Source: Tsukamurella paurometabola
GTDB lineage: Bacteria > Actinomycetota > Actinomycetes > Mycobacteriales > Mycobacteriaceae
Length of the DNA: 64,000 bases
Direction of reading: 5' to 3'
NCBI RefSeq assembly: GCF_900631615.1
Contig: NZ_LR131273.1
Span: 806,001-870,000, forward strand
The position numbers and the translations under genes were made by a program. Below the pieces are notes generated by a model. That model was not told the origin of the DNA and made no database searches. It saw only the letters and a program-made list of their open reading frames with translations. This document shows, piece by piece, positions 6,235-40,609 of the stretch (position 1 is its first letter; each line of letters begins with the position of its first letter).

Positions 6235-6965
6235 ACGTCCCTCGCCACCTTGAGCTGCTCGAAGACCTGCTGGGCCACCGCCGCGAGGGCGGTGTCCCCG
6301 ATCGGGGTGTCCGACTCGAAGTATGCCTGGGGAGCCGAGTCGATCACCACAACAGTAACCACGTCCCCGGGAATCGCGAGGCCCTCGCGGCTGACGAGGA
6401 TCCGGCCGACGACCCGCGCCGCACGCACCCCATCCACGGTCAGCGCCTCCGGCTCGGACGCACCGTCGAGCCGGGGCCGGTACGCGTCGTACCTGCTGCT
6501 CGCGACGATGCACGGGATGATGCGCCGCGCGGCCTCCGCGACCGGGACCCGCGGCGCGAAGGTCGTGAGCCCGACCTCGACGTGCGCGTCCCACGAGTGG
6601 CCGGGCACCCCGGTCCGCAATCCCGCCGCCTGCGCGCCGGGCGAGAACAGCTGGTACCGCTGCGGCGTCCACCCCGGCGCCGCGGAGACGGGGAAGGACA
6701 CCGGCCCCGAGACCACGCGGTCGGTGATCGGTGTGGTCGAGCCCGAGCCCGGCAGGCCGCACGCACTCGCCTTCCCCGACGAAGCCGCGGCGGCAGGGCC
6801 GGCCGACGTCGACGGGCCGGCGGATCCCCGCGCCAGCAGCAACGCCGCGAGCACCGCGACCAGCACGACGACGAGCACCGCTCCCCCGATCGCCCACCAC
6901 AGCCCCGCGTTCCCGCGGGCCGGTGGCGGCGGCGGGACCTGCGGAGGCGGCGGGTACGGGTTCAC
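6231..6965 (-). CDS. Membrane-anchored protein with extracytoplasmic domain, paralogue 2
   Basis: 244 residues: a short Pro-rich N-terminus (NPYPPPPQVPPPPPARG), one membrane helix (about residues 25-48), then a domain clearly related to the next gene (CGLPGSG, ITDRVVSGPVSFPVSAAPGW, SAPQAYFESDTPIGD). The GTG start at 6965 overlaps the stop of the DUF2786 gene in a GTGA. A longer reading frame to 7100 exists but would overlap the upstream gene deeply and lacks the family start. Function unknown; the tandem pair probably arose by duplication and then diverged, mainly in the cytoplasmic tail. Confidence 0.85.
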   Translation of the reverse strand: MNPYPPPPQVPPPPPARGNAGLWWAIGGAVLVVVLVAVLAALLLARGSAGPSTSAGPAAAASSGKASACGLPGSGSTTPITDRVVSGPVSFPVSAAPGWTPQRYQLFSPGAQAAGLRTGVPGHSWDAHVEVGLTTFAPRVPVAEAARRIIPCIVASSRYDAYRPRLDGASEPEALTVDGVRAARVVGRILVSREGLAIPGDVVTVVVIDSAPQAYFESDTPIGDTALAAVAQQVFEQLKVARDV

Positions 6966-7780
6966 GACGTGCCCTGCTCCAATGCCCCGCGGCTGCCGCC
7001 CACCTCCGAGTGGGCCCCCAGACGCGCGGACCGCCCCGCGCGATCGCCGGCACGGCGGGCACCGTCGGAGTACCCGGCCGAGGCGGTGGAACCGCGCCAC
7101 CGGCCCCGCGCCGTCGACTCCTCGCGGTAGAACGACGCGAGCTCGACCTCCTTGTCGCGCAGGGCGAGCGCGGTACCCGGTTCATCCCGCTCGGTGGCCT
7201 GCGCGGTGGCCTCGGCCCGCGCCTCGGCGAGCCGCGCCCCGATGCGCGCTGCGAACGCCGACTGGAAGTTGATCCGGGCGGTGACCGCCGCCACCGGCTT
7301 CGTCTCCACCCAGCGGCGCCGGGTCCGCCGGTCCTCGTAGAGCTGTTGCACCGTCTCCGACTTGTAGGCGCCGGACCGCAGGTAGGCGTCCGACGCGCGG
7401 ACCATCTGGATCACCAGGGAGGCGTACAACGCCTCGCACGCGTCGACGTCCTCCGCGAAGCCGTAGGCGAAGACGAAGGTGGAGTTGGAGGCCACGTCGC
7501 ACCGCACGTCGTTGGACTGCGCGATGGCGACGAACAGCTCGACGAAGGTGCGCAGGCCGCGCCGGCCCGCCTCCCCGATCCGGACGGTCCGCTGCTCGGG
7601 CACCGCGCGGGCCCGCTCGGCGCCGCGCTGGTGCGCGCGGGCGACGGCGAGGTCGATCGACGCGGCCGTGGCGAGCCGCTGCGCCGCCTCCGTGAACGTG
7701 GCCGCCTCGTGCTCGTTGTCGGTGCCCTCCGCCTGCCGCAGCAGGGCCCCGATGCGGGCGAGCAGCCTGTCGTCGTCCAT
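6962..7780 (-). CDS. DUF2786 domain protein
   Basis: First gene of the four-gene operon, 272 residues. Residues 1-45 (LLARIGALLRQAEGTDNEHEAATF.EAAQRLATAASI) match the DUF2786 pattern; the remainder is helical and charged and ends in a basic, low-complexity tail. Role unknown. ATG at 7780 fits the family start; GTG at 7810 is a longer alternative with a weak GGAAA before it. The stop overlaps the next gene by four bases. No signal peptide or membrane segment. Confidence 0.8.
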   Translation of the reverse strand: MDDDRLLARIGALLRQAEGTDNEHEAATFTEAAQRLATAASIDLAVARAHQRGAERARAVPEQRTVRIGEAGRRGLRTFVELFVAIAQSNDVRCDVASNSTFVFAYGFAEDVDACEALYASLVIQMVRASDAYLRSGAYKSETVQQLYEDRRTRRRWVETKPVAAVTARINFQSAFAARIGARLAEARAEATAQATERDEPGTALALRDKEVELASFYREESTARGRWRGSTASAGYSDGARRAGDRAGRSARLGAHSEVGGSRGALEQGTS

Positions 7781-7939
7781 GGGGGCGAGACTACCGGCGC
7801 CGACCGACACGTTTCCGCGCCCGGCACCACGGGCTGCGCGGTCGTTCCGCGGCGGTCCAAGCGAACGCCAAGCGGATCACCGGGCCCCGCGCCCTACCGT
7901 CGATGCCAGTTCCCCGGAACCACGTCGAAGGAGGCGTCC

Positions 7940-8368
7940 GTGTCGGTTCCCCCGCCCGCACCCGGTGCGTACCAGCAGTACCCGCACTACCCGCACTACC
8001 CGCAGCCCGCTCGGGCGTTCGTGCCCCGCGGAGGATTCCCCCACCCCTACGGCCGGTCGTACGCCCCGACCCCACCCCGGGCGGCGTACCCCACCCGCGA
8101 TCCCGGAACGATGACCGCGATCGCCGGCCTGGTGTTGTTCTTCCTCATCACGCTGCCGATCTACGTGCTCGGCACGGTGGCCGAGCTGAGTCCCCTGCTC
8201 TACCTGTCGGCGACGACATCGACGCTGTTCGTCGCGGTGCACTCCTTCACCCTCTCGAAGCGGCACGGGCACACCAACGTGATCGCCATCATCACCATGG
8301 TCCTGTGCACGATGCTCCTGATGACCGCGCTCGTGTCCACCCTCCTCCGGCTCCTGCTGATCCTCTGA
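7940..8368 (+). CDS. Small Pro/Tyr-rich membrane protein
   Basis: 142 residues, function unknown. The N-terminal 60 residues are rich in Pro and Tyr (PHYPHYPQP), followed by three hydrophobic stretches (about 65-85, 88-105 and 115-140). GTG at 7940 has AAGGAGG five bases upstream; the longer open frame upstream is antisense to the DUF2786 gene and has no such site. Divergent from the DUF2786 operon and followed by another small membrane protein. Confidence 0.8.
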   Translation: MSVPPPAPGAYQQYPHYPHYPQPARAFVPRGGFPHPYGRSYAPTPPRAAYPTRDPGTMTAIAGLVLFFLITLPIYVLGTVAELSPLLYLSATTSTLFVAVHSFTLSKRHGHTNVIAIITMVLCTMLLMTALVSTLLRLLLIL

Positions 8369-8454
8369 GCCCGGTCCGCAGCACACCGCCCGTCTCCGCG
8401 CTCGGCTACGCTTGGCGCACACCGATCTCCGCAGTGACAAAGGGAGCGTTCACG

Positions 8455-8841
8455 ATGTCGACGCCCAACGATCCGTCCGGATACGACCCGTACGGTTACG
8501 ACCCGTACGGGCAGCCACCGTCGTACCCCGCCCAGCCCTACCCGGGCGCCCACCAGCCCTACCCCGGCTACCCGCCGCCCCAGCAGCTGCAGGACCCGGA
8601 CCAGGCGATGGGCATCGTCGGGCTCGTCCTGTCGGTCCTGGGCTGCTACCCCGTGGGCCTGATCGTGAGCTGGATCGCGCACCGGCAGTCGCGGGACCGC
8701 GGGTACAAGAACACCCTGGCCACGGTGGGCATGGTCATCGGCGGCGTCTTCACGGGGCTCACGCTGCTCGCGCTCCTGGCGTACGGCGCCATGCTGCTGT
8801 TCTTCTTCGCCGTCGCGTCGTCGGGCAGCTCGCTGCTCTGA
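8455..8841 (+). CDS. DUF4190-like membrane protein
   Basis: 128 residues with a Tyr/Pro/Gly tail (GYDPYGYDPYGQPPSYP) and two membrane helices, the first with the pattern AMGIVGLVLSVLGC typical of DUF4190 proteins. Function unknown. ATG at 8455 follows AAAGGGAG. It probably shares a transcript with the preceding small membrane protein, although an 86-base gap leaves room for its own promoter. A strong hairpin follows. Confidence 0.8.
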   Translation: MSTPNDPSGYDPYGYDPYGQPPSYPAQPYPGAHQPYPGYPPPQQLQDPDQAMGIVGLVLSVLGCYPVGLIVSWIAHRQSRDRGYKNTLATVGMVIGGVFTGLTLLALLAYGAMLLFFFAVASSGSSLL

Positions 8842-8853
8842 CCCCGGGCACGA

Positions 8854-8891
8854 CGAAGCCCCCGACCTCCTCGCGGAGATCGGGGGCTTCG
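8854..8891. terminator. Bidirectional terminator between DUF4190 gene and rplA
   Basis: Perfect 12-base stem CGAAGCCCCCGA / TCGGGGGCTTCG with a further CTCC/GGAG pairing inside. It lies between two convergent genes (stops at 8841 and 8917) and can serve both. Confidence 0.88.
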
Positions 8892-8916
8892 TGGTTCAGA
8901 CCCTGATGAGGGAGGC

Positions 8917-9630
8917 TTACGCCTCTTCCTCGGTGAGGTTGTTCACGCGCTGCGGGTCCACCGGGATGCCCGGTCCGGTGGTCGTCGAGACGGTGACCTT
9001 CTTCAGGTACCGGCCCTTGGCCGCCGACGGCTTCGCGCGCAGGATCTCGTCCAGCGCGGCGCCGTAGTTCTCCACCAGCTGCTTGGCGTCGAAGGACGCC
9101 TTGCCGATCACGAAGTGCAGGTTCGCGGCCTTGTCGACGCGGAAGGTGATCTTGCCGCCCTTGATGTCGCCCACGGCCTTGGTCACGTCGGGGGTGACGG
9201 TGCCGGTCTTCGGGTTCGGCATCAGGCCACGGGGGCCGAGCACGCGAGCGATGCGACCGACCTTGGCCATCTGGTCCGGGGTGGCGATCGCGGCGTCGAA
9301 CTCGAGCCAGCCGCCCTGGATCTTCTCGATCAGGTCCTCGGCGCCCACCTCGTCGGCGCCCGCGGCCTTGGCCTCCTCGGCCTTGTCGCCGACGGCGAAG
9401 ACGATCACGCGGGCCGTCTTACCGGTGCCGTTCGGCAGGTTGACGGTGCCGCGCACCATCTGATCGGCCTTGCGGGGGTCGACACCGAGGCGCATGGCGA
9501 CCTCGACGGTGGCGTCCTGCTTGGTGGAGGAGGTCTCCTTGGCGAGCGTGACGGCCTCGAGCGGGCTGTACAGCTTGTCCTTGTCGACCTTCTCGGCAGC
9601 GGCCTTGTAGGCCTTGCTGTTCTTGCTCAT
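8917..9630 (-). CDS. rplA: 50S ribosomal protein L1
   Basis: 237-residue L1, which forms the mobile stalk of the large subunit and often represses its own operon by binding the mRNA. Family motifs are present: [32 protein letters not shown] and [14 protein letters not shown] at 9630 is preceded by AAAGAGC. Downstream of rplK with a 97-base spacer that contains a hairpin. Confidence 0.97.
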
Positions 9631-9700
9631 GTGTAGCTCTTTCGTTTCTTGCCCAGCTCAGGGGCAGTGAGTGGTTCCGCGGGCCGAGCCGGCCCTCCCA

Positions 9701-9722
9701 CGGGACGCGCAGAGGCGTCCCG
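9701..9722 (-). other. Hairpin in the rplK-rplA spacer
   Basis: CGGGACGC / GCGTCCCG stem of eight bases with a six-base loop, six bases past the rplK stop. It may be an attenuator, a processing site or an L1 target; the sequence alone does not decide. Confidence 0.4.
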
Positions 9723-9727
9723 GCGAC

Positions 9728-10159
9728 CTACTCGACGGTGATACCCATCGAGCGAGCAGTGCCGGCGATGATCTTCGCGGCCTGATCGATGTCGTTCGCG
9801 TTCAGGTCTTCCTTCTTGGTCTCGGCGATCTCGCGCACCTGATCCCAGGTCACCTTGGCGACCTTGTTCTTGTGCGGCTCACCCGAGCCCTTCTGCACGC
9901 CGGCTGCCTTGAGCAGCAGCTTGGCGGCCGGAGGAGTCTTCAGCTTGAAGTCGAAGGACCGGTCCTCGTAGACCGTGATCTCGACGGGGATGACGTTGCC
10001 ACGCTGCGACTCGGTCGCGGCGTTGTACGCCTTGCAGAACTCCATGATGTTGACGCCGTGCTGACCAAGCGCGGGACCCACGGGCGGAGCAGGGTTGGCC
10101 TGCCCGGCCTGGATCTGCAGCTTGATGAGCCCGGCGACCTTCTTCTTCTTCGGGGGCAT
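9728..10159 (-). CDS. rplK: 50S ribosomal protein L11
   Basis: 143-residue L11 of the GTPase-associated centre. It shows the Pro-rich hinge of the thiopeptide site ([20 protein letters not shown]), [12 protein letters not shown] and the C-terminal rRNA-binding signature ([11 protein letters not shown]). ATG at 10159 follows an AAAAAGGAAA-rich leader. Second ribosomal gene after nusG in the conserved secE-nusG-rplK-rplA order. Confidence 0.97.
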
Positions 10160-10181
10160 CCTCAGTTTCCTTTTTCTTCAC

Positions 10182-10205
10182 CCCGCGCCCTTGCACCGGC
10201 GCGGG
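10182..10205 (-). other. Hairpin in the nusG-rplK spacer
   Basis: CCCGCGCC / GGCGCGGG, eight base pairs with an eight-base loop, between the nusG stop and the rplK ribosome-binding site. Possibly a partial terminator or attenuator inside the operon. Confidence 0.4.
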
Positions 10206-10221
10206 AAGCATGTGGGTCTCG

Positions 10222-11052
10222 CTAGGAGATCTTCTCGACCTGGTTGAAGGCCAGCTCGACGGGCGTCTCACGACCGAAGATCGACACCAGCACCTTGAGC
10301 TTGCGCTGCTCGGCGTTGATCTCGCTGATGGACGCGGGCAGGGTGGCGAACGGGCCGTCCATGACGGTGACCGACTCGCCGACCTCGAAGTCGACCTCGA
10401 CCGCGGGGCCCTGCGAGACGGCCGCGCCGGACGCGGCGGCGGCACCGTCGGACGCGGCACCGGCCTTGTCCTTGGCGGGCTTGGTCCGCGCGCTCTCGGG
10501 GAGCAGGAACTTCACGACCTCGTTCATCGTGAGCGGCGACGGCTTGCTGGTCAGGCCGACGAAGCCGGTGACGCCGGGGGTGTTGCGCACCGCGCCCCAG
10601 GACTCGTCGTTGAGGTCCATGCGCACCAGGATGTAGCCCGGCAGCACCTTGCGGTTGACCCGCTTCTGCTGGCCGTTCTTGATCTCGGTGACCTCCTCGG
10701 TGGGGACCTCCACCTGGAAGATGTAGTCGCCGACGTCGAGGTTCTGGACGCGGGTCTCGAGGTTGGCCTTGACCTTGTTCTCGTAGCCCGCGTAGGTGTG
10801 GATCACGTACCAGTCGCCGGGGGCGGTGCGCAGCTGCGCCTTCAGCTCCTCGACGGGGTCGATCTCCTCCTCGGCCTCCTCCGCGACGATCTCGGCACCG
10901 TCGCCGGGCTCGTCCGCGCCGAGGACGCTCTCCTCGACCTCGATCAACGCCTCGTCCTCGGCCGACTCGACCTCGGTCGCCACGGCAGCGTCATCGGCCT
11001 GCACGCCCTCGGGGGAGTCCAGTTCTGCCTCGTTGTGCTCCGGGGTGCTCAC
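10222..11052 (-). CDS. nusG: Transcription termination/antitermination factor NusG
   Basis: 276 residues. An acidic, low-complexity N-terminal extension of about 85 residues (rich in Glu, Asp and Ala) precedes the NGN domain ([16 protein letters not shown] ... [17 protein letters not shown]). After a short Ala/Lys-rich linker comes the KOW domain ([21 protein letters not shown]). NusG binds RNA polymerase and links it to Rho or ribosomes. The acidic extension is normal in actinobacteria. Start ATG at 11052; secE lies 42 bases upstream. Confidence 0.96.
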
Positions 11053-11094
11053 AGCGCCGAAGTTCCTTCCGTCTCGTCTACTCGTGTGGTCCGG

Positions 11095-11484
11095 CTATTT
11101 GCCGAACGCCCACAACATCAGCTTCGCGAAGCCGAGGTCGAGGAGGCTGATCATCGCGGTGAGGACCACCACGAAGACCAGCACGATGATCGTGTAGTTG
11201 ATCATCTGGCTCCGGGTCGGCCAGATGACCTTCCGCAGCTCCGCGACGACCTGGCGGATGAACAGCCAGATGGCGGCGAACGGGTTGCGCGAGGGCTTCG
11301 CGTCCGCGGACTTCTTCGCGGTGCCGGACTCGACCGCCGAACCGGGCTCCGGAGCCTCGGCCAGCGCGGTGCGGCTGCGACGGCCGCTGGAGCGCTTACC
11401 GGAAGGGCGGGCCTGCTGGGCGTCTTCGGCGGCGCTGTCGCCGGCGGTCTCGCCGGTGGTCGCGTCGTCCTTCTCGTCGCTCAC
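11095..11484 (-). CDS. secE: Preprotein translocase subunit SecE
   Basis: Essential small subunit of the SecYEG channel. The 129-residue protein has a variable Ala/Ser/Asp-rich N-terminus, then the conserved amphipathic helix and single membrane span (RQVVAELRKVIWPTRSQM, then TIIVLVFVVVLTAMISLLDLG). GTG at 11484 is preferred over ATG at 11490 because GGAGGG lies at proper distance only for the GTG. First gene of secE-nusG, next to tRNA-Trp as in mycobacteria. Confidence 0.95.
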   Translation of the reverse strand: MSDEKDDATTGETAGDSAAEDAQQARPSGKRSSGRRSRTALAEAPEPGSAVESGTAKKSADAKPSRNPFAAIWLFIRQVVAELRKVIWPTRSQMINYTIIVLVFVVVLTAMISLLDLGFAKLMLWAFGK

Positions 11485-32030: not shown

Positions 32031-32591
32031 CTAGCGGTTCGCGGTGAGTCCTGACTCCGCCGCGTTGGCCTGCGCGATCCGATCCGCAGCCTCAAAAGGG
32101 ACGGCTGAGACGAAGTAGGTCTGCGGCTTAGTATTCACGACAACCACGTGGAACCGATCCGCGGACACAGGAGCCCCCTGCACCTCGATACTCGCTGTAG
32201 CACGGGTCGCCTGGACACCGGAGATGTTGGTCGGAGTGACGACCAAGCCCACCACGCGAGCCTTGTTCTTCACGTAACCCGATGTATTCGGCGCGTTGAG
32301 CACAATCGACCGCGCCACATCCTCGCTTGTCCGACCGTCAGCTCCCGTAATCCCAAGTTCGACGACCGATGCCCAGTTCTTTCCCGGCAGCTTTACCGAG
32401 GCAGCTGTCGTGCCCTCTGTATCGGGACCAGAGACGTTCCACCCCGCAAGCGCCGCTCGCGGTATCGACAAGGGCCCGGCTGCGACACGCTCTGGATCGG
32501 CGGAAACCGCCCCGGTAGCCAGCACTGAGCCCATTACCGTTGCAATCAAACCTCCGGCAACTCCCCGCCGAACGCTAGCGTTAATGCTCAT
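32031..32591 (-). CDS. Secreted relative of the 5-7 kb membrane-anchored proteins
   Basis: 186 residues with a signal peptide (SVRRGVAGGLIATVMGSVLA, cleavage near AVSA). The mature part carries the motifs of the genes at 5329 and 6231: GPLSIPRAALAGW, WASVVELGITG, VQATRATASIEV, NTKPQTYFVSAVPFE. Here the membrane anchor is replaced by a cleavable signal. Function unknown. ATG at 32591 follows GAAAGG and starts one base after the immunity-like gene stops, so the two are co-transcribed. Confidence 0.8.
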   Translation of the reverse strand: MSINASVRRGVAGGLIATVMGSVLATGAVSADPERVAAGPLSIPRAALAGWNVSGPDTEGTTAASVKLPGKNWASVVELGITGADGRTSEDVARSIVLNAPNTSGYVKNKARVVGLVVTPTNISGVQATRATASIEVQGAPVSADRFHVVVVNTKPQTYFVSAVPFEAADRIAQANAAESGLTANR

Positions 32592-33031: not shown

Positions 33032-33098
33032 CTAGTTGAAGAGTCGGCGGGTGACTGTGTTTCCGGATTCGTTTATCCAGGAGACCACGTACGAGGAG
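33032..33098 (-). pseudogene. Orphaned 3' end of the toxin gene
   Basis: After the IS3 insertion this piece holds the last 21 codons of the toxin (product ends WINESGNTVTRRLFN) and its TAG stop at 33032-33034, plus one GAG target copy at 33096-33098. It joins in frame to 34371 and upstream. Confidence 0.85.
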
Positions 33099-33159
33099 GG
33101 GACTGCTGCACCGATAAGGACATCTGATCTGGCTTGCCCGCATAGGGTGGCCTGGAAGG

Positions 33160-33477
33160 ATGACTATCGTGCCGAAGCCGTATCCGCAGGAGTTCCGTGA
33201 TGACGTGGTCCGCGTGGCCCGTGAGCGCGAGTCGGGGGTGACGCTCGCCCAGATCGCGAAGGACTTCGGGATTCATGAGATGACGCTGCAGAAGTGGTTG
33301 CGCCGCGCGGATATCGATGACGGCCGCAGGCCGGGAACGACATCAACGGAATCGGTTGAGCTGCGTGAGCTGCGGAAGCGGAATCGCTTGCTGGAGCAGG
33401 AGAATGAGGTATTGCGGCGGGCGGCGGCGTATCTGTCGCAGGCGAATCTGCCGGGAAAAGGCTCTACCCGCTCGTGA
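33160..33477 (+). CDS. IS3-family transposase OrfA
   Basis: 105-residue DNA-binding half of the transposase: helix-turn-helix (VTLAQIAKDFGIHEMTLQKWLRRA, about 27-50) followed by a leucine-zipper-like coiled coil (LRELRKRNRLLEQENEVLRR). ATG at 33160 follows GGAAGG. Ends overlapping the orfB start (GTGA) and contains the frameshift heptamer GGGAAAA. Confidence 0.93.
   Translation: MTIVPKPYPQEFRDDVVRVARERESGVTLAQIAKDFGIHEMTLQKWLRRADIDDGRRPGTTSTESVELRELRKRNRLLEQENEVLRRAAAYLSQANLPGKGSTRS
33453..33459 (+). other. Predicted -1 ribosomal frameshift site
   Basis: Heptamer G-GGA-AAA in the orfA frame, of X-XXY-YYZ form. A -1 slip continues as KRLYPLVKELAADG into orfB without a stop, giving a fusion transposase of about 391 residues, the active form in IS3 elements. 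Confidence 0.7.
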
Positions 33478-34334
33478 AGGAGCTCGCCGCCGACGGCATT
33501 CCCGTGGCGGTGACGTGCCGGGTTCTCAAGCTCTCTCGTCCGCCGTACTACCGGTGGCTGACCGAGGCGGTCACCACGGCTGAACGAACCGAGGCCGTGC
33601 GGGCGAACGCGCTGTTCGATGCCCACCGTGATGACCCGGAGTTCGGGTATCGATTTCTCGCCGATGAGGCCGAAGCTGCTGGCCAGAGCATGAGTGCGCG
33701 GACGGCGTGGCGGATCTGCTCGGAGAACAGCTGGTGGTCAAGGTTCGGGAAGAAACGCGGCCGGAACGGGAAGAAACCCGGCCCGCCGGTGCACGACGAC
33801 CTCGTCGAACGCGACTTCACCGCCGAATCTCCGAACCAGTTGTGGCTCAGCGATATCACCGAGCATTGGACTGACGAGGGCAAGGTCTACCTTTGCGCGA
33901 TCAAGGACGCCTGCTCGGGGCGGATCGTCGGCTACAGTATCGACTCCCGCATGCAATCACGTCTCGCCGTCAGTGCGTTGAACAATGCGGTTGCCCGCCG
34001 TAGCCACGACGTCGCAGGTTGTATTGTGCACTCCGACAGAGGCTCTCAATTCCGGTCCCGCAAATTCGTGTCGGCGTTGAACCGACACCATCTGGTCGGA
34101 TCGATGGGCAGAGTCGGCGCCGCCGGCGACAACGCCGCGATGGAGTCGTTCTTCGCACTGCTGCAGCGCAACGTCCTCGACCGGCAGCGATGGAGCACCC
34201 GCGAGCAACTCCGGATCGCGATCGTCACCTGGATCGAACGGACCTACCACCGCCGGCGCCGCCAGGCCCGCCTCGGCCGGTTGACGCCGATCGAATACGA
34301 GGCGATCATCAACACAGCCGCATCAGCGGCATGA
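33474..34334 (+). CDS. IS3-family transposase OrfB (DDE catalytic half)
   Basis: 286 residues with a complete integrase core: Asp127 in LWLSDITEH, Asp188 in VHSDRGSQF and Glu224 in GDNAAMESFF, giving the D-D(35)E spacing. The C-terminus has the usual TYHRRRRQARLGRLTPIEYE. It may start at GTG 33474 but is probably made mainly as the OrfAB fusion by frameshifting. Confidence 0.95.
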   Translation: MKELAADGIPVAVTCRVLKLSRPPYYRWLTEAVTTAERTEAVRANALFDAHRDDPEFGYRFLADEAEAAGQSMSARTAWRICSENSWWSRFGKKRGRNGKKPGPPVHDDLVERDFTAESPNQLWLSDITEHWTDEGKVYLCAIKDACSGRIVGYSIDSRMQSRLAVSALNNAVARRSHDVAGCIVHSDRGSQFRSRKFVSALNRHHLVGSMGRVGAAGDNAAMESFFALLQRNVLDRQRWSTREQLRIAIVTWIERTYHRRRRQARLGRLTPIEYEAIINTAASAA

Positions 34335-34370
34335 CACCGTAACTGTCTCTATCGGTGCAGCAGTCCCGAG

Positions 34371-35075
34371 GGTCGTACTGAGTCGCCCTTGTAGGCGAGT
34401 TTGATTGTAGCATCGACCGGGTTTCCACCGGCGATTTGCTTTGCCCATTGCTCTTCAATTTTGTAGAAGGAGTTCTTTCCTGCCTGGTTGAGGCTTTCCT
34501 TCATTGCGGTGATGTTGATTCCTTCTCCGGGGCCGCCGAATCGGGTGCCCCAAAGGTGTCCGCCTTGGTCGCCTGGGAGGCGGTCTGCTCGACCTGAGAC
34601 CTTCTGCTGGTAGCCGTTGCGGTCGGATGGTTTGAGATCGGAGAGGAGCCCTCGGGTTTCGGTTACGCGCCCCTTGGAGTCTGTGTTGTAGATGAACTTT
34701 CCGCCGTCGACGATGTAGGTGGTGTCAGGCTTTGGCTTGTGAAGTTCCTTGGTCCAGTTGCCTGTGCCGCCAGAGGTTAGTTCGGCCACGTTGCGTCCTG
34801 ACTGGGCGGCTGCGTCTCGTGCCGCGTCGGCTGCATCGCCGGCCGCATCTGTTGCGGTCTTGCCGGCGGTTTGGGCGGCGTCGGAAGCTGCCTGCGTACC
34901 GGCACTTGTCGCATCGCCAGCAGCATCTGTCGCAGTCCTGCCTGCCGTGCTGGCTGCGTCACCTGCGGCGTCTGTCGCGGCTCGTCCGGCTGTTTGCGCC
35001 GCGTCGGAAGCGACCCGTGTACCGGTACTCGCGGCATCGCCAGCGGCGTCCGTCGCGGCCCTCCCCGCGGTGCTA
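34371..35075 (-). pseudogene. Toxin middle fragment: repeat stalk and nuclease domain
   Basis: Residues about 633-867 of the reconstructed toxin. It starts at the IS630 edge without a start codon, runs through the Ala-rich repeats and into the nuclease domain (GGHLWGTRFGGPGEGINITAM with the catalytic His). Read onward into IS3 it gains only GLLHR before a stop at 34349. A GTG at 34789 could in principle start a free nuclease-domain protein of 146 residues, so residual toxicity is conceivable. Confidence 0.8.
34829..35074 (-). repeat. Two 123-bp tandem repeats in the toxin stalk
   Basis: Units at 35074-34952 and 34951-34829, each encoding 41 residues built from ATDAAGDAA, ASDAAQTAG and STAG modules. 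A further partial unit lies on the far side of IS630 (about 36223-36300). The encoded stretch is Ala/Asp/Thr-rich and predicted helical. Confidence 0.85.
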
Positions 35076-36222
35076 GTGGCGCGTGTCGTTAATCATTGAA
35101 CAGTTTGGTGCCTGCGAGAATTGAGGCATGGCGAATCATCCTGCTCCGGCGTTGACGCTGCGCGATGGTGATCGGGAGGTGCTGGAGTCGTGGACCCGGT
35201 CCGCTTCGGTGCGGGCGTCCGCGGCCAAGCGGGCGCGGATCGTGTTGCTGGCCGCTGATGGTGAGTCGAATCAGCGGATCGCTGAGTTGGTCGATGCGAG
35301 CCGGACGACGGTGATCGCGTGGCGGGATCGGTATCTCGAGCGTGGCCTGGAGGGCCTGTCCGATCGGGTTCGGCCAGGCCGGCCGCGGGAGCTCGATCAG
35401 GATGCGATCATCGTCGCAACGCTCACGCCGCCGCCGAAAAGCCTTGGGGTGACGCATTGGTCGACGAGGCTGCTCGCCGCCCGGATCAAGGTGTCGCCGG
35501 CCGCGGTGGCGCGGGCGTGGCGCGCGTACGGGATCAAACCGTTCAAGGCCGAATCGTTCCGGTTCTCCACCGACCCCGAGCTGGTCGGCAAGGTCACCGA
35601 CATCTGCGGCCTGTACTTGAACCCGCCTCAGAACGCGATCGTGCTGTGCGTGGATGAGAAGTCGCAGATCCAAGCCCTGGATCGGACGGTGCCGATCCTG
35701 CCGACCCAGCCCGGGAAGGTCGAACGCCGCTCCCATGACTACTACCGGCACGGCACCACCACCTTGTTCGCCGCCCTCGACATCGCGACCGGCAAGGTCA
35801 CCGCCGCCCTCAAACCCAAGCACCGGCACCAGGAGTTCCTGGCGTTCCTGCGTCAGATCGAGCGGGCCTACCGCGACGTGCTCGACTCCGACGGCAACCC
35901 GGTCGAGCTGCACCTGGTGATGGACAACTACGCAGCTCACAAGCATGCGAACGTCAAGGCCTGGCTCGCCAAGCATCCCCGGATCGTCGTGCACTTCACC
36001 CCGACACACGCCTCCTGGATGAATCTCGTCGAGGCCTGGTTCGGGATCGTCGAACGACAGGCCATCCGGCGCGGCGTGTTCACCTCCGTCCAGGACCTCA
36101 ACGCCAAGATCCGGGCGTTCATCGACGGCTGGAACCCGAGAGCACAGCCGTTCGTCTGGACCAAGACCGCCGAGCAGATCCTCGAGAAGGCGAACCGTCC
36201 AACAACTTCAAACCCGCGCCAC
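35076..36222 (+). mobile_element. Complete IS630-family insertion sequence
   Basis: 1,147 bp bounded by GTGGCGCG and CGCGCCAC, flanked by TA on both sides (35074-35075, 36223-36224), the standard IS630 target duplication. Imperfect similarity of the ends continues inward for about 35 bases. One transposase gene. It inserted exactly at a boundary of the toxin repeat region. Confidence 0.94.
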
Positions 36223-36225
36223 TAG
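35128..36225 (+). CDS. IS630-family transposase
   Basis: 365-residue single-frame transposase. N-terminal helix-turn-helix region (ESNQRIAELVDASRTTVIAW, about 48-67), winged-helix linker, then DDE domain with Asp176 (LCVDEKSQIQ), Asp266 (VMDNYAAHK) and Glu302 (WMNLVEAWFGIVERQ), spacing D(35)E. ATG at 35128. Its TAG stop at 36223-36225 is made of the duplicated target TA plus the next host base, so termination depends on the insertion site. Confidence 0.95.
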   Translation: MANHPAPALTLRDGDREVLESWTRSASVRASAAKRARIVLLAADGESNQRIAELVDASRTTVIAWRDRYLERGLEGLSDRVRPGRPRELDQDAIIVATLTPPPKSLGVTHWSTRLLAARIKVSPAAVARAWRAYGIKPFKAESFRFSTDPELVGKVTDICGLYLNPPQNAIVLCVDEKSQIQALDRTVPILPTQPGKVERRSHDYYRHGTTTLFAALDIATGKVTAALKPKHRHQEFLAFLRQIERAYRDVLDSDGNPVELHLVMDNYAAHKHANVKAWLAKHPRIVVHFTPTHASWMNLVEAWFGIVERQAIRRGVFTSVQDLNAKIRAFIDGWNPRAQPFVWTKTAEQILEKANRPTTSNPRH

Positions 36226-38119
36226 CAGCATCACCTGCAGCATCCGTCGCGGTCTTACCTGCAGTGCTGGCTACGTCTCCAGCCGCTTCTGCTGCTTTGC
36301 CTGTTGTCTTAGCCGTGGCTTGGGCGGCTTCTTCGGCACCCTTGGCAACCTTGCCAGCCGTAGAGGCAGCCTTCCCTGCTCCCTTGGTGGGGTCGACGAT
36401 TGTCTGGAGGACATTGCCGACGACCTTGCCGGAGGCGTACGCAGTGTCGCCGCGGTCGAAGTCATCCTTGGCGATGAAGGCGTTGCCAACGGCTTTCCAG
36501 GAGTCGGCGACCCCGGGGCCGCCTTCTTCGCCCAGGCCGACGAGTGGGGCCATGCCCTTGGCAGTGTCGACGGGGTGGGCGACCATCTGGCCGACGCCTT
36601 CGGCGGTGTCGAGCACGCTGCGGCCGACGCCGGCACCGAAGTTCTTCACACCGCTGCCAACGCTCTTAACCTTGTCCCAGAACGGATCGGCGATGATCGG
36701 GTATACGTTGTCCGGCCCGGGCTCGATGTGCTGGACCATCTCGTCGCCCTCGATGTCGTACCAGGTGGGTACCTCCTTGCCGTTGGCGTCGTAGGCCCAA
36801 GGGGCGTTGAACTGGCCGACCTGCTCGCCATTGCGGTCGAAGACGGAGATGGAGCCGTCATCGTTCTTGACCGAGCGGCCGCCTTCGGGGGGGTTGAGCG
36901 GGAATCGGTACTGCTTGGGAGCGTCCTGGTTCTTCATCAGGATCAGCTTCTGGTAGTCCCCATCTTCCTTGGGGACAGTGATGATGTCGTAGCTCGGGTC
37001 AGCACTGGTGCCGTCCGGGTTGAGCTTGAGGCCCGCCATTCGGGCCATCTCTTCCGGGCTGCGGCCGGCGCTGCCTCCGGGCTGCGCCTGGTCCCACAGC
37101 TTCCACGCCTGATCGGCGGTGGGCTTGGAACCGCCGCTGGTGTTGCGGCGACGGCCGGCCATGACACCGGTCGCTTCGGCGACGAGGTAGGACCACGACG
37201 GTGCACCGTCCTTGTTCTCACCGTCCCCGTCGGGACCGCTGCCGCCTTCCGCGCCGGGCGCACCGGGTCCACCGTTGCCCCCACCGGGGGCGCCGCCGTT
37301 GCCGGCGGCGCCGGGAGCGGGGCACTGCGACTGGGTCTGCGTGACGGTCACCGTCGACTGAGAAGGCTGTCCGGACTGTGTCGGCTGGCCGGTCTGCTGC
37401 TGGCCTGTCTGGTCGGGGCGTCCGGGTGCGGTCGTGCGGACCGGGTTCTGCTGTCCGGTCTGCTGGCCCTGGCCGGGCTGCTGGCCCTGGCCGGTCGGGT
37501 TACCCGGAATGTTCGGCGCCTGCCCACCCGGGCTACCGAAGTCCGGGGTCTGGGCCTGGATGTTTCCGCCGTCGTTGCCGCCGCTGCCGGCGGGTGAGGT
37601 GGCGATGCCGTTGTTGTCCTGACCGCTGCCCTGACTCCCCTGCTGCCCACCGGGAGCGGTGGTCTGCTGCGCGGGCGGGGTGATCGTCAGCTCCGGGCCG
37701 GGGCCGGGGCCACAGGTCGCCGGCCCACCACCGGGGCACGGCGCCGCCGACGCGACACCGGCGCCGGGCCCGGTCGCGGCGAAGCCCATCATTCCGACCG
37801 CCACCACGATCCCGGCCACGGCGGCGGCCGCGCGCACCTGCTCCGGTGCGGGTGCACCGACACCGGCGGAGCGAAGCTTGCTCAGCCCGGTGAAGAAGAT
37901 CCGGCCGACGATCACCATGATCAGCCAGAAGGTCAGGAACACCACGGGCACCGGGGTGAACCGGGGTGCCTCGATGGAGAACATCACCCCACCGAACATC
38001 CCGGCCAACCCGATCACTGTCAGGAACGCACCCTGAAGACGCTGCTGGGCCACCGACCCGCCGGCGTCTCCGGCCGAGCCCGAGGCGTGGACCGGATTGC
38101 CCCTCGCGTGCGCTGCCAT
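36223..38119 (-). pseudogene. Toxin N-terminal fragment
   Basis: Codes for residues 1-632 of the reconstructed toxin and, as it stands, reads a further 34 codons into IS630 before stopping at 36119. The fragment could still be translated: it keeps the start, the membrane segments, the Gln/Pro/Gly linker (PGQGQQTGQQNPVRT) and the conserved YDIEGDEMVQHIEPG domain, but lacks the nuclease. Confidence 0.85.
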
Positions 38120-38417: not shown

Positions 38418-39431
38418 TCATCCCGCCATCACCCCGAGCGCGATCCCGAGGCCGAGCACCATGACTGCCAGCGCCACGATGACGCCCATGACGATCTGAT
38501 GGGTGCGCAGTTCCGACAGGGCCGCCGACTGCGACGCGGTCCAGAACTCGATCGCGCTTTCCGGCACCTGCGACGCCGCCGCTCCACCGAATCGGAAATC
38601 GGGATCCGCGTTGCCGTTGCCGACGGGCACGCCCGTCGACGAGAGCGCGATCAACGCATCCGCCGTCAGTACCAGCCTGGTGTGGTCGTACAGCCACACA
38701 CGGGGGCGACCGGCGGAGGTCCACCGTTGCGCGTCGTGCTCCAGCCCGGTTCTGGCGATCAACGTCGGATAGGAGTCGGCCACCCACCTCGCCAGACGTG
38801 GCCAGGCATCGATCAGCGCCACGTCGACCAGGGCAACGCGCCCGACCTCGAAACCGCCGTCCGCCATCCGCAGCACCGGCTCGACGAGGACGCCGAGATC
38901 GATCAGTTCCGACGTCACCGTTCGCGCGCCGTCATCGCCCGATGAGGTGGGGGCCCACGCCCGCGTCGTGACAGCCCCGTCGACGGAGATCTCGAGACAG
39001 TCGAGAAGCATGGTTCGCACCGCCTCGACGGTCAGGTCGTCGGACGCCCCCACCCACTTCTCGGCCGACGCGGCGATCTGACCGACTGCGGGCGTCTTCG
39101 CCTCTGCGCCGATGGTGGTATCGAACAGGGACTGCCACTGCCGTACTGTGAGCACAGTCGCGCCGCCCTCGGGGCCGGTGCTGTTCCGACGAAGCCGATG
39201 CGCGCGGTCAGTCAGCAGGACCAATAGTGGCTCGATCGTCGAGAAGTCGGTCGGAAAATGTCGTCCCGTGCGCCAGTGCGAGATCGTGCCGTTACTGACC
39301 CCCGTCAGTCGCGCGACCTCCGCGACCGTCGGCGACCCCGCAGCGACGAACAGCCGACGCAGGGAGGCCGCGAAGAAGGCGGCGTCGCCGTTACCGGATG
39401 TTCCTCCGTTCGCGGGTGATCTCGCCACCAC
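38418..39431 (-). CDS. HTH protein with C-terminal membrane helix
   Basis: 337 residues, not assigned to a named family. XRE-like helix-turn-helix at about 33-57 (SPTVAEVARLTGVSNGTISHWRTGRHFP), a long middle domain, and one C-terminal membrane helix (about 314-336, QIVMGVIVALAVMVLGLGIA). This layout places the DNA-binding domain in the cytoplasm and almost nothing outside, so it could be a membrane-tethered regulator or a structural DNA-membrane link. GTG start at 39431 (or 39428). Seven bases downstream of the next small membrane gene, so one operon with it and probably the porin. Confidence 0.78.
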   Translation of the reverse strand: MVARSPANGGTSGNGDAAFFAASLRRLFVAAGSPTVAEVARLTGVSNGTISHWRTGRHFPTDFSTIEPLLVLLTDRAHRLRRNSTGPEGGATVLTVRQWQSLFDTTIGAEAKTPAVGQIAASAEKWVGASDDLTVEAVRTMLLDCLEISVDGAVTTRAWAPTSSGDDGARTVTSELIDLGVLVEPVLRMADGGFEVGRVALVDVALIDAWPRLARWVADSYPTLIARTGLEHDAQRWTSAGRPRVWLYDHTRLVLTADALIALSSTGVPVGNGNADPDFRFGGAAASQVPESAIEFWTASQSAALSELRTHQIVMGVIVALAVMVLGLGIALGVMAG

Positions 39432-39438
39432 AGCGAAC

Positions 39439-39768
39439 CTAACTGCGGCCGTTACGAACCGCCGCCCAGATCGCCGAGAATCCCCCGACGACGAGCTGGC
39501 TCGCGATCAGCATCACCAGGACGAACGCCACGAACACGGCGGGCATCGTCCACCGTTGCCCCCACTCACCGAGATGCTCGACCGCGAAGCCACATCCCAC
39601 CAGCATCGCGAGCCCGATCACGAAACCGAGTGCCTTGAACGCCAGCGTGCGCAGCGCTTCGGCATCCCCGGTACTTGCTGCAGAGTGCTGCGGGTCGTGC
39701 TGCACCGCGGAATATTGTCCTCGCTGCATCGGAACCTGTTGCGTGTCCGCCGAGTTGGCGTCAGTCAT
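39439..39768 (-). CDS. Small membrane protein with two helices
   Basis: 109 residues, unrecognised. A polar, Gln-rich N-terminus of about 45 residues, then two membrane helices (AFKALGFVIGLAMLVGCGFA and PAVFVAFVLVMLIASQLVV). ATG at 39768 follows GGAGGGG. Lies between the porin gene (46 bases upstream) and the HTH-TM gene (7 bases downstream). Confidence 0.78.
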   Translation of the reverse strand: MTDANSADTQQVPMQRGQYSAVQHDPQHSAASTGDAEALRTLAFKALGFVIGLAMLVGCGFAVEHLGEWGQRWTMPAVFVAFVLVMLIASQLVVGGFSAIWAAVRNGRS

Positions 39769-39814
39769 TGCGATCCACCCCTCCACAAGGAATCAGTCGT
39801 CGTCACGATGCGCA

Positions 39815-40609
39815 CTACGGGCGGGTGATGAAGATCGGCTTGCCGTACGTCGTGATCGAATCGTCGGTCCGGTCGGTCTGCAGCGCGATCGTCGCGTACG
39901 AGCGGACCTGAACACCGCCGATGCAGTTGTCCACCGCCACCCGGACCTCACGCGTGTAGGTGGCCGCATCCGGGCCCTCGAGACTCTTCTTGGCGTACGG
40001 AATATCCTTGGTCGTTCCCGGCTTCAGTACGCCCGAGATCGATCCGGTCTCGGTGAGGGTGTCGCCGATCGTGGCCGAGATCCCCGGCGTCACACCGGCC
40101 GACACACTACCGCCACCGCTGCCGCCGGTCGTGCCGCCCTGCCCCGTCGCGGTTCCAGTGAGATTCGCTGTCACCGACGGGGTCACCCCCACGTTGGTCG
40201 CATTCGAGATGCTGCCGCCCACGGTCAAGCTGTCCGCAGTGACGGCGCAGCCCACCTGCAGCCCTGTGGTCAGAACGGCCGACTTCACCTTCGACTTCGG
40301 CTTCTTCGTGGGATCGGCGACCGAGACTGTGGCCTCACCTCCGATGGTCGAGAAAGCTTCGAACGACTGCGGCGAGCGGTTCAGTGGGGGAACGGAACGC
40401 AACGCTTCCATCGTCTTTGTGACCACCACCTTCCAGCCATCGCGCGTGACCACGGTGCGCGAACTGTCGGCGAACTGATCGTCGGCTTTGGGTTTGGTCT
40501 CACCCGAGGGCTTCGGGGCCGGCGCGGCGTTCGCGATCGGGGCAACCGTCAGCGTCGCAGCGATGACGACGGTGAGACCTGCAAGCGCATGCGTTGTGCG
40601 AGAAGACAT
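39815..40609 (-). CDS. MspA-family outer-membrane porin
   Basis: 264-residue exported protein with a signal peptide (ALAGLTVVIAATLTVAPIA, cleavage near ANAAP). The rest follows the MspA pattern: DGWKVVVTKTMEALRSVPPLNR, GLQVGC with SISNATNVGVTPSVT, GVTPGISATIGDTLTETGSISG, and the C-terminal YATIALQTDRTDDSITTYGKP that mirrors the end of mycobacterial MspA. MspA forms octameric pores through the mycolate outer membrane. The rim segment holds a Gly/Ser/Thr-rich stretch (GQGGTTGGSGGG). ATG at 40609 follows AGGAG at seven bases. Confidence 0.85.
   Translation of the reverse strand: MSSRTTHALAGLTVVIAATLTVAPIANAAPAPKPSGETKPKADDQFADSSRTVVTRDGWKVVVTKTMEALRSVPPLNRSPQSFEAFSTIGGEATVSVADPTKKPKSKVKSAVLTTGLQVGCAVTADSLTVGGSISNATNVGVTPSVTANLTGTATGQGGTTGGSGGGSVSAGVTPGISATIGDTLTETGSISGVLKPGTTKDIPYAKKSLEGPDAATYTREVRVAVDNCIGGVQVRSYATIALQTDRTDDSITTYGKPIFITRP

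What the first reader, a model, noticed from the sequence alone, without database searches (positions are those of the whole stretch)
33032..38119. Nuclease toxin broken twice by transposons; both excisions restore one 888-residue frame
Seen: deleting IS630 (35076-36222) with one TA and IS3 (33099-34367) with one GAG gives 2,667 nt, exactly 889 codons, without a stop, joining AGDAAS to TAGRAATD and SVRPS to SYVVSWINE. Known: the C-terminal pattern (GGHLW..RFGGP....NI.., Tyr-rich helix, RP..) is the DNA/RNA non-specific endonuclease toxin domain of LXG/YeeF-type polymorphic toxins. Inference: a contact-dependent toxin with membrane segments, a Gly/Gln/Pro linker, an unknown conserved domain and an Ala-rich stalk, inactivated recently. 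The N-terminal architecture is not one I recognise from LXG, WXG or CDI toxins, so the delivery route may be undescribed in mycolata.
Basis: partly seen in the sequence, partly recalled or inferred. Interest (0 to 1): 0.9.

Follow-up and report, generated by a model that had tools for sequence, protein, structure and literature searches.

The report
Porin-linked toxin family, IS-broken copy
A DNA-cutting bacterial toxin gene interrupted by two jumping genes turns out to belong to a family of toxins with exchangeable killing ends in Tsukamurella, many of which lie beside their own kind of outer-membrane pore protein, which hints at an undescribed way for these waxy-coated bacteria to export toxins.

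Summary
A minus-strand toxin gene (38119 to 33032) is cut by an IS630 (TA duplication) and an IS3 (3-bp duplication). Its pieces were searched apart, never joined. The middle piece is an EsaD/YeeF-type nuclease with catalytic His and Asn in place. The next gene, a distant YezG relative, is its likely immunity gene: the pair recurs elsewhere.

The larger finding: the N-piece, in no Pfam or NCBIfam family, belongs to a polymorphic-toxin family with matches in 15 of 16 Tsukamurella genomes. Members share three membrane helices, a Cys pair, usually an A-x-A site, a linker and a junction motif; their C-ends differ. At the window's own chromosomal site three species carry three different C-ends. 25 of 32 N-module places lie within 6 kb of an MspA-family gene (0.76 expected); in a tree of 56 of 128 MspA matches the toxin-linked ones share one clade.

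Best reading: Sec-exported polymorphic toxins with a dedicated MspA-type mycomembrane partner. The link is genomic; export through MspA is inference. The IS damage looks recent, and the same IS3 also cut a second paralog.

The parts
39815..40609 (-). MspA-family secreted protein (signal-like N-terminus) of the toxin-linked clade
   Evidence: PF09203 E 2e-45; clade in tree
39439..39786 (-). Small protein with two predicted membrane helices; relatives found in 24 of the 32 N-module loci
38418..39431 (-). HTH protein with C-terminal membrane helix; probable regulator
   Evidence: HTH_31 below cut-off (E 0.00033), nSTAND1 C-terminal part E 2.5e-9; hydropathy; near 27 of 32 N-module places
36223..38119 (-). 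Toxin N-piece: three membrane helices, A-x-A site, Cys pair, linker, junction motif, middle domain, start of Ala-rich stalk
35076..36222 (+). IS630-family element inserted in the toxin gene, TA target duplication
34370..35071 (-). Toxin middle piece: rest of the stalk and most of the His-Me nuclease domain
   Evidence: PF13930, EssD/EsaD
33099..34367 (+). IS3-family element inserted near the end of the nuclease domain, 3-bp target duplication
33032..33094 (-). Toxin C-terminal tail, 20 residues
32593..33015 (-). Likely immunity gene, distant YezG-like (below cut-off)
32031..32591 (-). 186-aa protein with a signal-like N-terminus, recurring near toxin cassettes

Best explanation
The gene is an IS-inactivated member of a polymorphic toxin family that diversified in Tsukamurella. 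Shown by sequence: a conserved N-module, variable C-ends with different genes behind them, exchange of C-end plus immunity at one chromosomal site, and close linkage to one clade of MspA-family proteins. Inferred: the toxin enters the inner membrane by Sec, its third helix works as an internal signal sequence cut at the A-x-A site, the freed part reaches the surface or medium with help from the partner MspA-type protein in the mycolate outer membrane, and the C-end (nuclease, membrane-active domain or hydrolase) harms neighbours that lack the matching immunity protein. The HTH-membrane protein probably regulates the set and the small two-helix protein probably assists. In this strain the window copy has lost its nuclease end to IS630 and IS3, a second paralog has lost its end to the same IS3, and a third has an open frame; the immunity gene in the window is kept.
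For: N-module matches in 15 of 16 genomes; Cys pair invariant in 29 of 29 rows; three hydropathy segments in the 6 proteins scanned; A-x-A in 27 of 28 scorable rows; junction motif in 25 of 27; different C-ends; three C-ends at one syntenic site; nuclease and immunity side by side again in G006 and G002 and low GC of both; MspA within 6 kb of 25 of 32 places against 0.76 expected, HTH protein near 27 of 32; 26 of 26 toxin-linked MspA in one clade with one more that lies beside a toxin remnant; a similar set in another genus; identical IS copies and IS3 in a second paralog.
Against: No expression, secretion or killing data. 7 of 32 places have no MspA within 6 kb, and MspA lies on the opposite strand in 10 of 25. 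Only 56 of 128 MspA matches are in the tree, which warns of long branches. 9 of the 23 proteins scanned had a toxin- or hydrolase-type or Gly-zipper Pfam match, 5 of these below cut-off... see full report for the list. Immunity family match is below cut-off. In 7 of 8 loci with the middle domain outside Tsukamurella no MspA was seen except one weak profile hit.
Confidence: 0.6

Rival explanations
1. Polymorphic toxin family as described, exported by Sec and released by another route; the MspA neighbour serves something else (entry into target cells, permeability, or shared control by the HTH protein) and is no toxin channel.
For: MspA on the opposite strand in 10 of 25 and absent within 6 kb in 7 of 32; known MspA pores are narrow solute channels (recalled).
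Against: Linkage far above chance and one MspA clade only.
Confidence: 0.28
2. Type VII (ESX) substrate with an unrecognised signal.
For: The same nuclease type is carried by T7SS toxins EsaD and YeeF (PMC9616950 passages); M. abscessus prophage polymorphic toxins have WXG100 domains (PMC8092301 passages).
Against: No LXG or WXG model at E up to 1; no W-x-G in the first 330 residues; three membrane helices at the start. L-x-G occurs twice and Y-xxx-[DE] once in that stretch, the latter at residue 311, so short motifs do not decide. ESX genes themselves were not surveyed.
Confidence: 0.07
3. MspA and toxin genes are merely neighbours inherited together at an old site, without functional link.
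For: Near-identical or identical MspA copies occur within G013 and G012, so whole blocks may have been duplicated.
Against: The set recurs at up to three separate sites per genome, in two diverged subfamilies, in both relative orientations, and in part in another genus.
Confidence: 0.05

Closest known systems
EsaD/EsaG (EssD) and YeeF/YezG nuclease toxin-immunity pairs of Firmicutes type VII systems
   Same: Nuclease C-end (PF13930; His and Asn of the active site line up) and a YezG-like gene next to it
   Different: No LXG/WXG N-terminus; here three membrane helices and an MspA neighbour; immunity similarity is below the family cut-off
Polymorphic toxin systems as defined by Zhang et al. 2012 (PMC3482391, term-search passages)
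   Same: Constant N-part, variable C-ends, different genes behind them, exchange at one site
   Different: N-module and the MspA/small-membrane/HTH-membrane set; the held text of that paper has no hit for MspA or Tsukamurella
CdiA/CdiB two-partner secretion (recalled)
   Same: Works-like analogy only: toxin gene linked to an outer-membrane protein gene
   Different: No TPS domain, no Omp85-type CdiB; MspA family instead; no evidence that MspA transports the toxin
CpnT/TNT of Mycobacterium tuberculosis (abstracts of PMC7810871 and PMC8593097)
   Same: Toxin as C-terminal domain of a larger protein in a mycolate bacterium
   Different: CpnT is itself an outer-membrane protein and TNT secretion needs WXG100 proteins EsxE and EsxF; here a separate MspA-family gene and no WXG motif
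MspA porins
   Same: PF09203 (155 bits against cut-off 22.9)
   Different: Toxin-linked clade apart from the other Tsukamurella MspA sampled, with a Gly-rich stretch

Membership tests
Polymorphic toxin systems | Conserved N-part with differing C-terminal toxin domains | tested here: met
   32 N-module places; WHH, PF13930 (two diverged) and Ntox44 above cut-off, HNH, Gly-zipper, Tox-REase-5 and GH19 below cut-off
Polymorphic toxin systems | Immunity gene directly behind the toxin | tested here: inconclusive
   Small genes directly behind many toxins; for the window, the nuclease-immunity pair recurs in G006 and G002, about 1 kb apart in G003, not seen in G001; protection not tested
Polymorphic toxin systems | Exchange of C-end and immunity cassettes | tested here: met
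   Three C-ends at one syntenic site; L023 aligns on both sides of the cassette only
Polymorphic toxin systems | Killing of related cells | not testable with these tools
   needs competition assays
EsaD/YeeF nuclease domain (PF13930) | Profile match over cut-off and catalytic His and Asn | tested here: met
   80 bits against 27; GGH His and LNQ Asn fall on EsaD H528 and N551, numbering counted by hand from the alignment (residues named in PMC9616950); the last stretch is cut off by the IS3
YezG-like immunity (PF04634) | Profile match over cut-off | tested here: not met
   16.5 bits against 21.7; best of 6 relatives scanned 19.2
LXG / WXG100 type VII toxins | LXG or WXG100 N-terminal domain | tested here: not met
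   No such model at E up to 1; no W-x-G in first 330 residues
CDI / two-partner secretion | TPS domain in the toxin and an Omp85-type partner | tested here: not met
   No such Pfam match in the toxin pieces; the neighbouring outer-membrane candidate is MspA family
MspA family (PF09203) | Profile match over cut-off | tested here: met
   155.3 bits against 22.9; single-sequence PDB search found none at E 0.001, profile A5 (13 toxin-linked and 5 other rows) matched 2v9u and 1uun weakly
MspA family (PF09203) | Oligomeric pore in the mycomembrane | not testable with these tools
   needs biochemistry

The most novel reading that the evidence does not exclude
A dedicated toxin secretion system of the mycolate outer membrane: an MspA-clade protein is the outer-membrane channel for a cognate Sec-exported polymorphic toxin, a two-partner-like system built on MspA instead of Omp85 and independent of type VII secretion.
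Probability: 0.3. Interest if true: 0.92.

Novelty: new variant of a known kind. Interest (0 to 1): 0.74.

Why it matters
How proteins cross the mycolate outer membrane is a long-standing open question (recalled). A toxin family that travels with one clade of a pore family gives a small gene set in which the question can be tested by single deletions. It adds a candidate interbacterial weapon to a genus for which searches listed no paper on polymorphic toxins, and would give MspA-family proteins a role beyond solute uptake.

Tried and rejected
Type VII export: no LXG/WXG model and no W-x-G motif; ESX genes were not surveyed. Anti-phage defence: PADLOC gave one weak match, mad1 E 0.0012, for the HTH protein among 7 proteins. 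L033 as an intact relative with the same nuclease: only E 0.069 by BLASTP, although it also matches PF13930. Immunity fold: single-sequence model, mean pLDDT 46.4, not used. PDB search with the immunity protein found nothing up to E 10. Plasmid records: 18 hold a relative of the middle piece, all under 60% identity, none covering 80% of it. A first, stricter junction regex matched 10 of 28 proteins; I relaxed it after looking at the sequences, so the 25 of 27 is descriptive, not a blind test.

Literature: searches listed no paper whose title or start of abstract links MspA with polymorphic toxins or describes polymorphic toxins in Tsukamurella; two searches showed only the top 20 of 538 and 15 of 61. 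This is the open-licence PMC library only. Read: term-search passages of PMC8092301, PMC3482391 (first 300,000 characters held) and PMC9616950; listings with starts of abstracts for the rest. One passage against full novelty: M. abscessus plasmids pGD33 and pGD36-2 carry WXG genes and an MspA porin gene together (PMC8092301, figure legend).
Full report
Setting. The window is bases 806001-870000 of a single-contig 4.70-Mb genome.

The observation. On the minus strand a gene starting at 38119 is interrupted by an IS630 and an IS3. Terminal repeats, transposases and target duplications are as expected. The genome holds 3 IS3 and 7 IS630 matches, all 100% identical to the window copies, so the insertions look recent. 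Four congeners (L023, L024, L025, L026) carry the N-piece and the stalk of the middle piece in the same order in one ORF.

The nuclease and its neighbour. The middle piece matches PF13930 (E 2.4e-22) and the solved EssD/EsaD nuclease (E 6.3e-16). In that alignment its GGH histidine and the Asn of its LNQ stretch fall on EsaD H528 and N551, which PMC9616950 names as a catalytic residue and the Mg ligand (passages); I counted the numbering by hand. The gene after it (140 aa) is YezG-like only below cut-off (16.5 bits against 21.7; best of 6 relatives 19.2). Pairing is the better evidence. In G006 an 83% relative of the nuclease (with two in-frame stops) is followed by a 95% relative of the immunity gene and a 69% relative of the 186-aa protein. 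In G002 a 32% nuclease relative is followed by a 30% immunity relative. In G003 an immunity relative lies about 1 kb downstream. In G001 none was found in the 3.3 kb held. In more distant genomes I picked by eye 5 of 19 loci with a nuclease-like protein upstream of an immunity relative; 3 of the 5 match PF13930, all below cut-off. The nuclease and immunity genes are 57% and 56% GC in a 70% GC window, as an acquired cassette would be.

A family found by its N-module. The N-piece has no Pfam or NCBIfam family over cut-off (one sub-threshold match, Bflower E 0.31). It has matches in 15 of 16 Tsukamurella genomes, that in G011 weak (E 1.1e-4). Of 43 match rows I took 32 as N-module places (21 close, called I; 11 more distant, called II) and set aside 11 (7 second segments of places already counted, 4 middle-domain only). 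In the alignment of 29 of these the Cys pair is invariant. Hydropathy gives three membrane segments in each of the 6 proteins scanned. An A-x-A stands just before the first conserved Cys in 27 of 28 scorable rows; L041 lacks it, L034 could not be scored. After a linker comes a junction motif (PSWxYLVxExxxxxxGRRR or PYQAAExxxxxGTYRRK) in 25 of 27 proteins scanned; L041 and L052 show variants by eye. In 11 of the 21 close places the first match segment ends at query residues 329-354, just after that motif, and in 6 of the 11 a second segment resumes later.

C-ends. 23 proteins were scanned (L056 among them has only the middle domain). 9 gave a toxin-, hydrolase- or Gly-zipper-type match: above cut-off WHH (L035), PF13930 (L033) and Ntox44 (L046); below cut-off HNH (L026), Gly-zipper (L028), Tox-REase-5 (L038, L040, L051) and GH19 (L045). 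The other 14 gave none, L025 included although its end is 79% identical to that of L026. Calling the ends of L029, L030 and L032 Gly-zipper-like or membrane-active is by eye. In the order search (397 genomes drawn evenly) the N-module alignment matched 6 genomes: 4 Tsukamurella strongly, two others weakly (9.2e-5, 1.9e-4).

Cassette exchange at one site. The window aligns with G004 (L026) and G014 (L029) through flanking genes on both sides, yet the window has the nuclease end, G004 an HNH-like end and G014 an end like that of L028 (53% over 68 residues). Against G002 (L023) the N-part (86% DNA identity) and the 186-aa gene (90%) align, while the C-end and immunity between them do not.

The MspA link. 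An MspA-family match lies within 6 kb of 25 of 32 N-module places (0.76 expected from MspA density), and a match to the HTH-membrane protein near 27 of 32. 8 of 40 HTH match rows lie elsewhere. A relative of the small two-helix protein was found in 24 of the 32 loci. MspA and toxin are on the same strand in 15 of 25, opposite in 10. In a tree of 56 of the 128 MspA match rows, the 26 labelled toxin-linked (25 by N-module, 1, L055, by a broken middle-domain fragment) and one more form a clade (100/98) apart from the other 29. That one more, in the window's own genome, lies beside a reading frame ending like the L028/L029 toxins and an unrelated downstream ORF. The tree warns of long branches and is midpoint-rooted; 72 rows were not sampled. 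Places without MspA within 6 kb: two in G006, one each in G014, G005 (contig end), G000, G013 and G007.

Outside the genus. The small-protein alignment matched 14 of 397 order genomes: 4 Tsukamurella, G089 (E 8e-15) and 9 weak ones (2.5e-6 to 3.3e-4). In G089 an MspA split over two frames (51 and 60 bits), the small protein and a toxin-like gene with one signal-like helix, two Cys, a linker and the middle domain lie together; that gene is interrupted by an IS3-type transposase region. The middle domain matched 19 of 397 genomes in 12 genera. Of 8 such loci outside Tsukamurella that I inspected, 1 (G089) has clear MspA and the small protein; L144 has a weak MspA-profile hit (E 0.0038) and the other 6 none.

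Inactivation. In the window's genome the close N-module occurs at three places: the window copy (two IS); L036, cut by the same IS3, whose relative L030 in G006 aligns to both sides of the element; and L040, with an open frame. A fourth place (4608044) matches only positions 89-137 of the profile. The third IS3 copy lies outside any toxin seen here. Given the window copy, the rough chance that either other IS3 copy falls in either other paralog is about 0.002, ignoring target preference and selection. A broken nuclease beside a kept immunity gene is also seen in G006. Selection against toxin cost and tolerance of insertions in dispensable genes both fit; I cannot separate them.

Mechanism. Shown: architecture, linkage, exchange, recent IS damage. 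Inferred from established knowledge of signal sequences and porins: Sec export with helix three as internal signal sequence, cleavage, outer-membrane passage with the MspA partner, harm by the C-end. The MspA step is the least certain: the known MspA pore is narrow (recalled), so an unfolded toxin or a modified pore would be needed. The linked clade does differ in a Gly-rich stretch.

Literature. PMC3482391 (first 300,000 characters, term search) has no hit for MspA or Tsukamurella. M. abscessus prophage toxins are WXG100-type, and two of its plasmids carry WXG genes and an MspA gene together (PMC8092301 passages). No paper linking MspA with polymorphic toxins was seen in the listings.

Verdict. 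The broken gene alone is a modest finding. The family behind it appears undescribed in what I searched: a polymorphic toxin family with an N-module of its own and a probable dedicated MspA partner. In the Against line the words 'see full report' point to the C-end paragraph above: of the 9 matches, 6 are below cut-off and 3 above, and the '5' printed there should read 6.

Noticed in passing
L114 (G089 C1:793000-811000), 6795-11152: In another genus of the same family, a split MspA, the small two-helix protein and a toxin-like gene lie together, and that gene is also interrupted by an IS3-type element.
   Followed up: partly
L102 (G000 C1:2304000-2320000), 7877-9902: In the window's own genome an MspA of the toxin-linked clade stands beside a frame that ends like a Gly-zipper toxin, followed by another ORF: probably what is left of a further toxin locus.
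   Followed up: partly
L168 (G006 C2 near 4113949): A separate cassette of nuclease (with two in-frame stops), immunity gene (95% identical to the window's) and 186-aa protein, with no N-module match in the 3.4 kb held.
   Followed up: partly
L045 8217-9983; L046 6126-7829: Subfamily II members end in a GH19-like domain (just below cut-off) and an Ntox44 domain, so this branch also carries differing C-ends.
   Followed up: partly
window 32031-32591; L023 4357-4929 and 11209-11784; L036 5025-5807; L168 429-994: A 186-aa protein with a signal-like N-terminus recurs near toxin cassettes; no Pfam family.
   Followed up: no
window 36668-36997 (middle domain); alignment A6: The middle domain (YRF ... 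PWAYD ... PILADP) occurs in 19 of 397 order genomes, 12 genera, mostly without MspA nearby in the loci inspected; possibly a general pre-toxin domain.
   Followed up: partly
L082 (G009 C1:3956000-3972000), 6864-10629: A degraded copy of the whole set (MspA, small protein, HTH, toxin N-module) with apparent frame changes.
   Followed up: no
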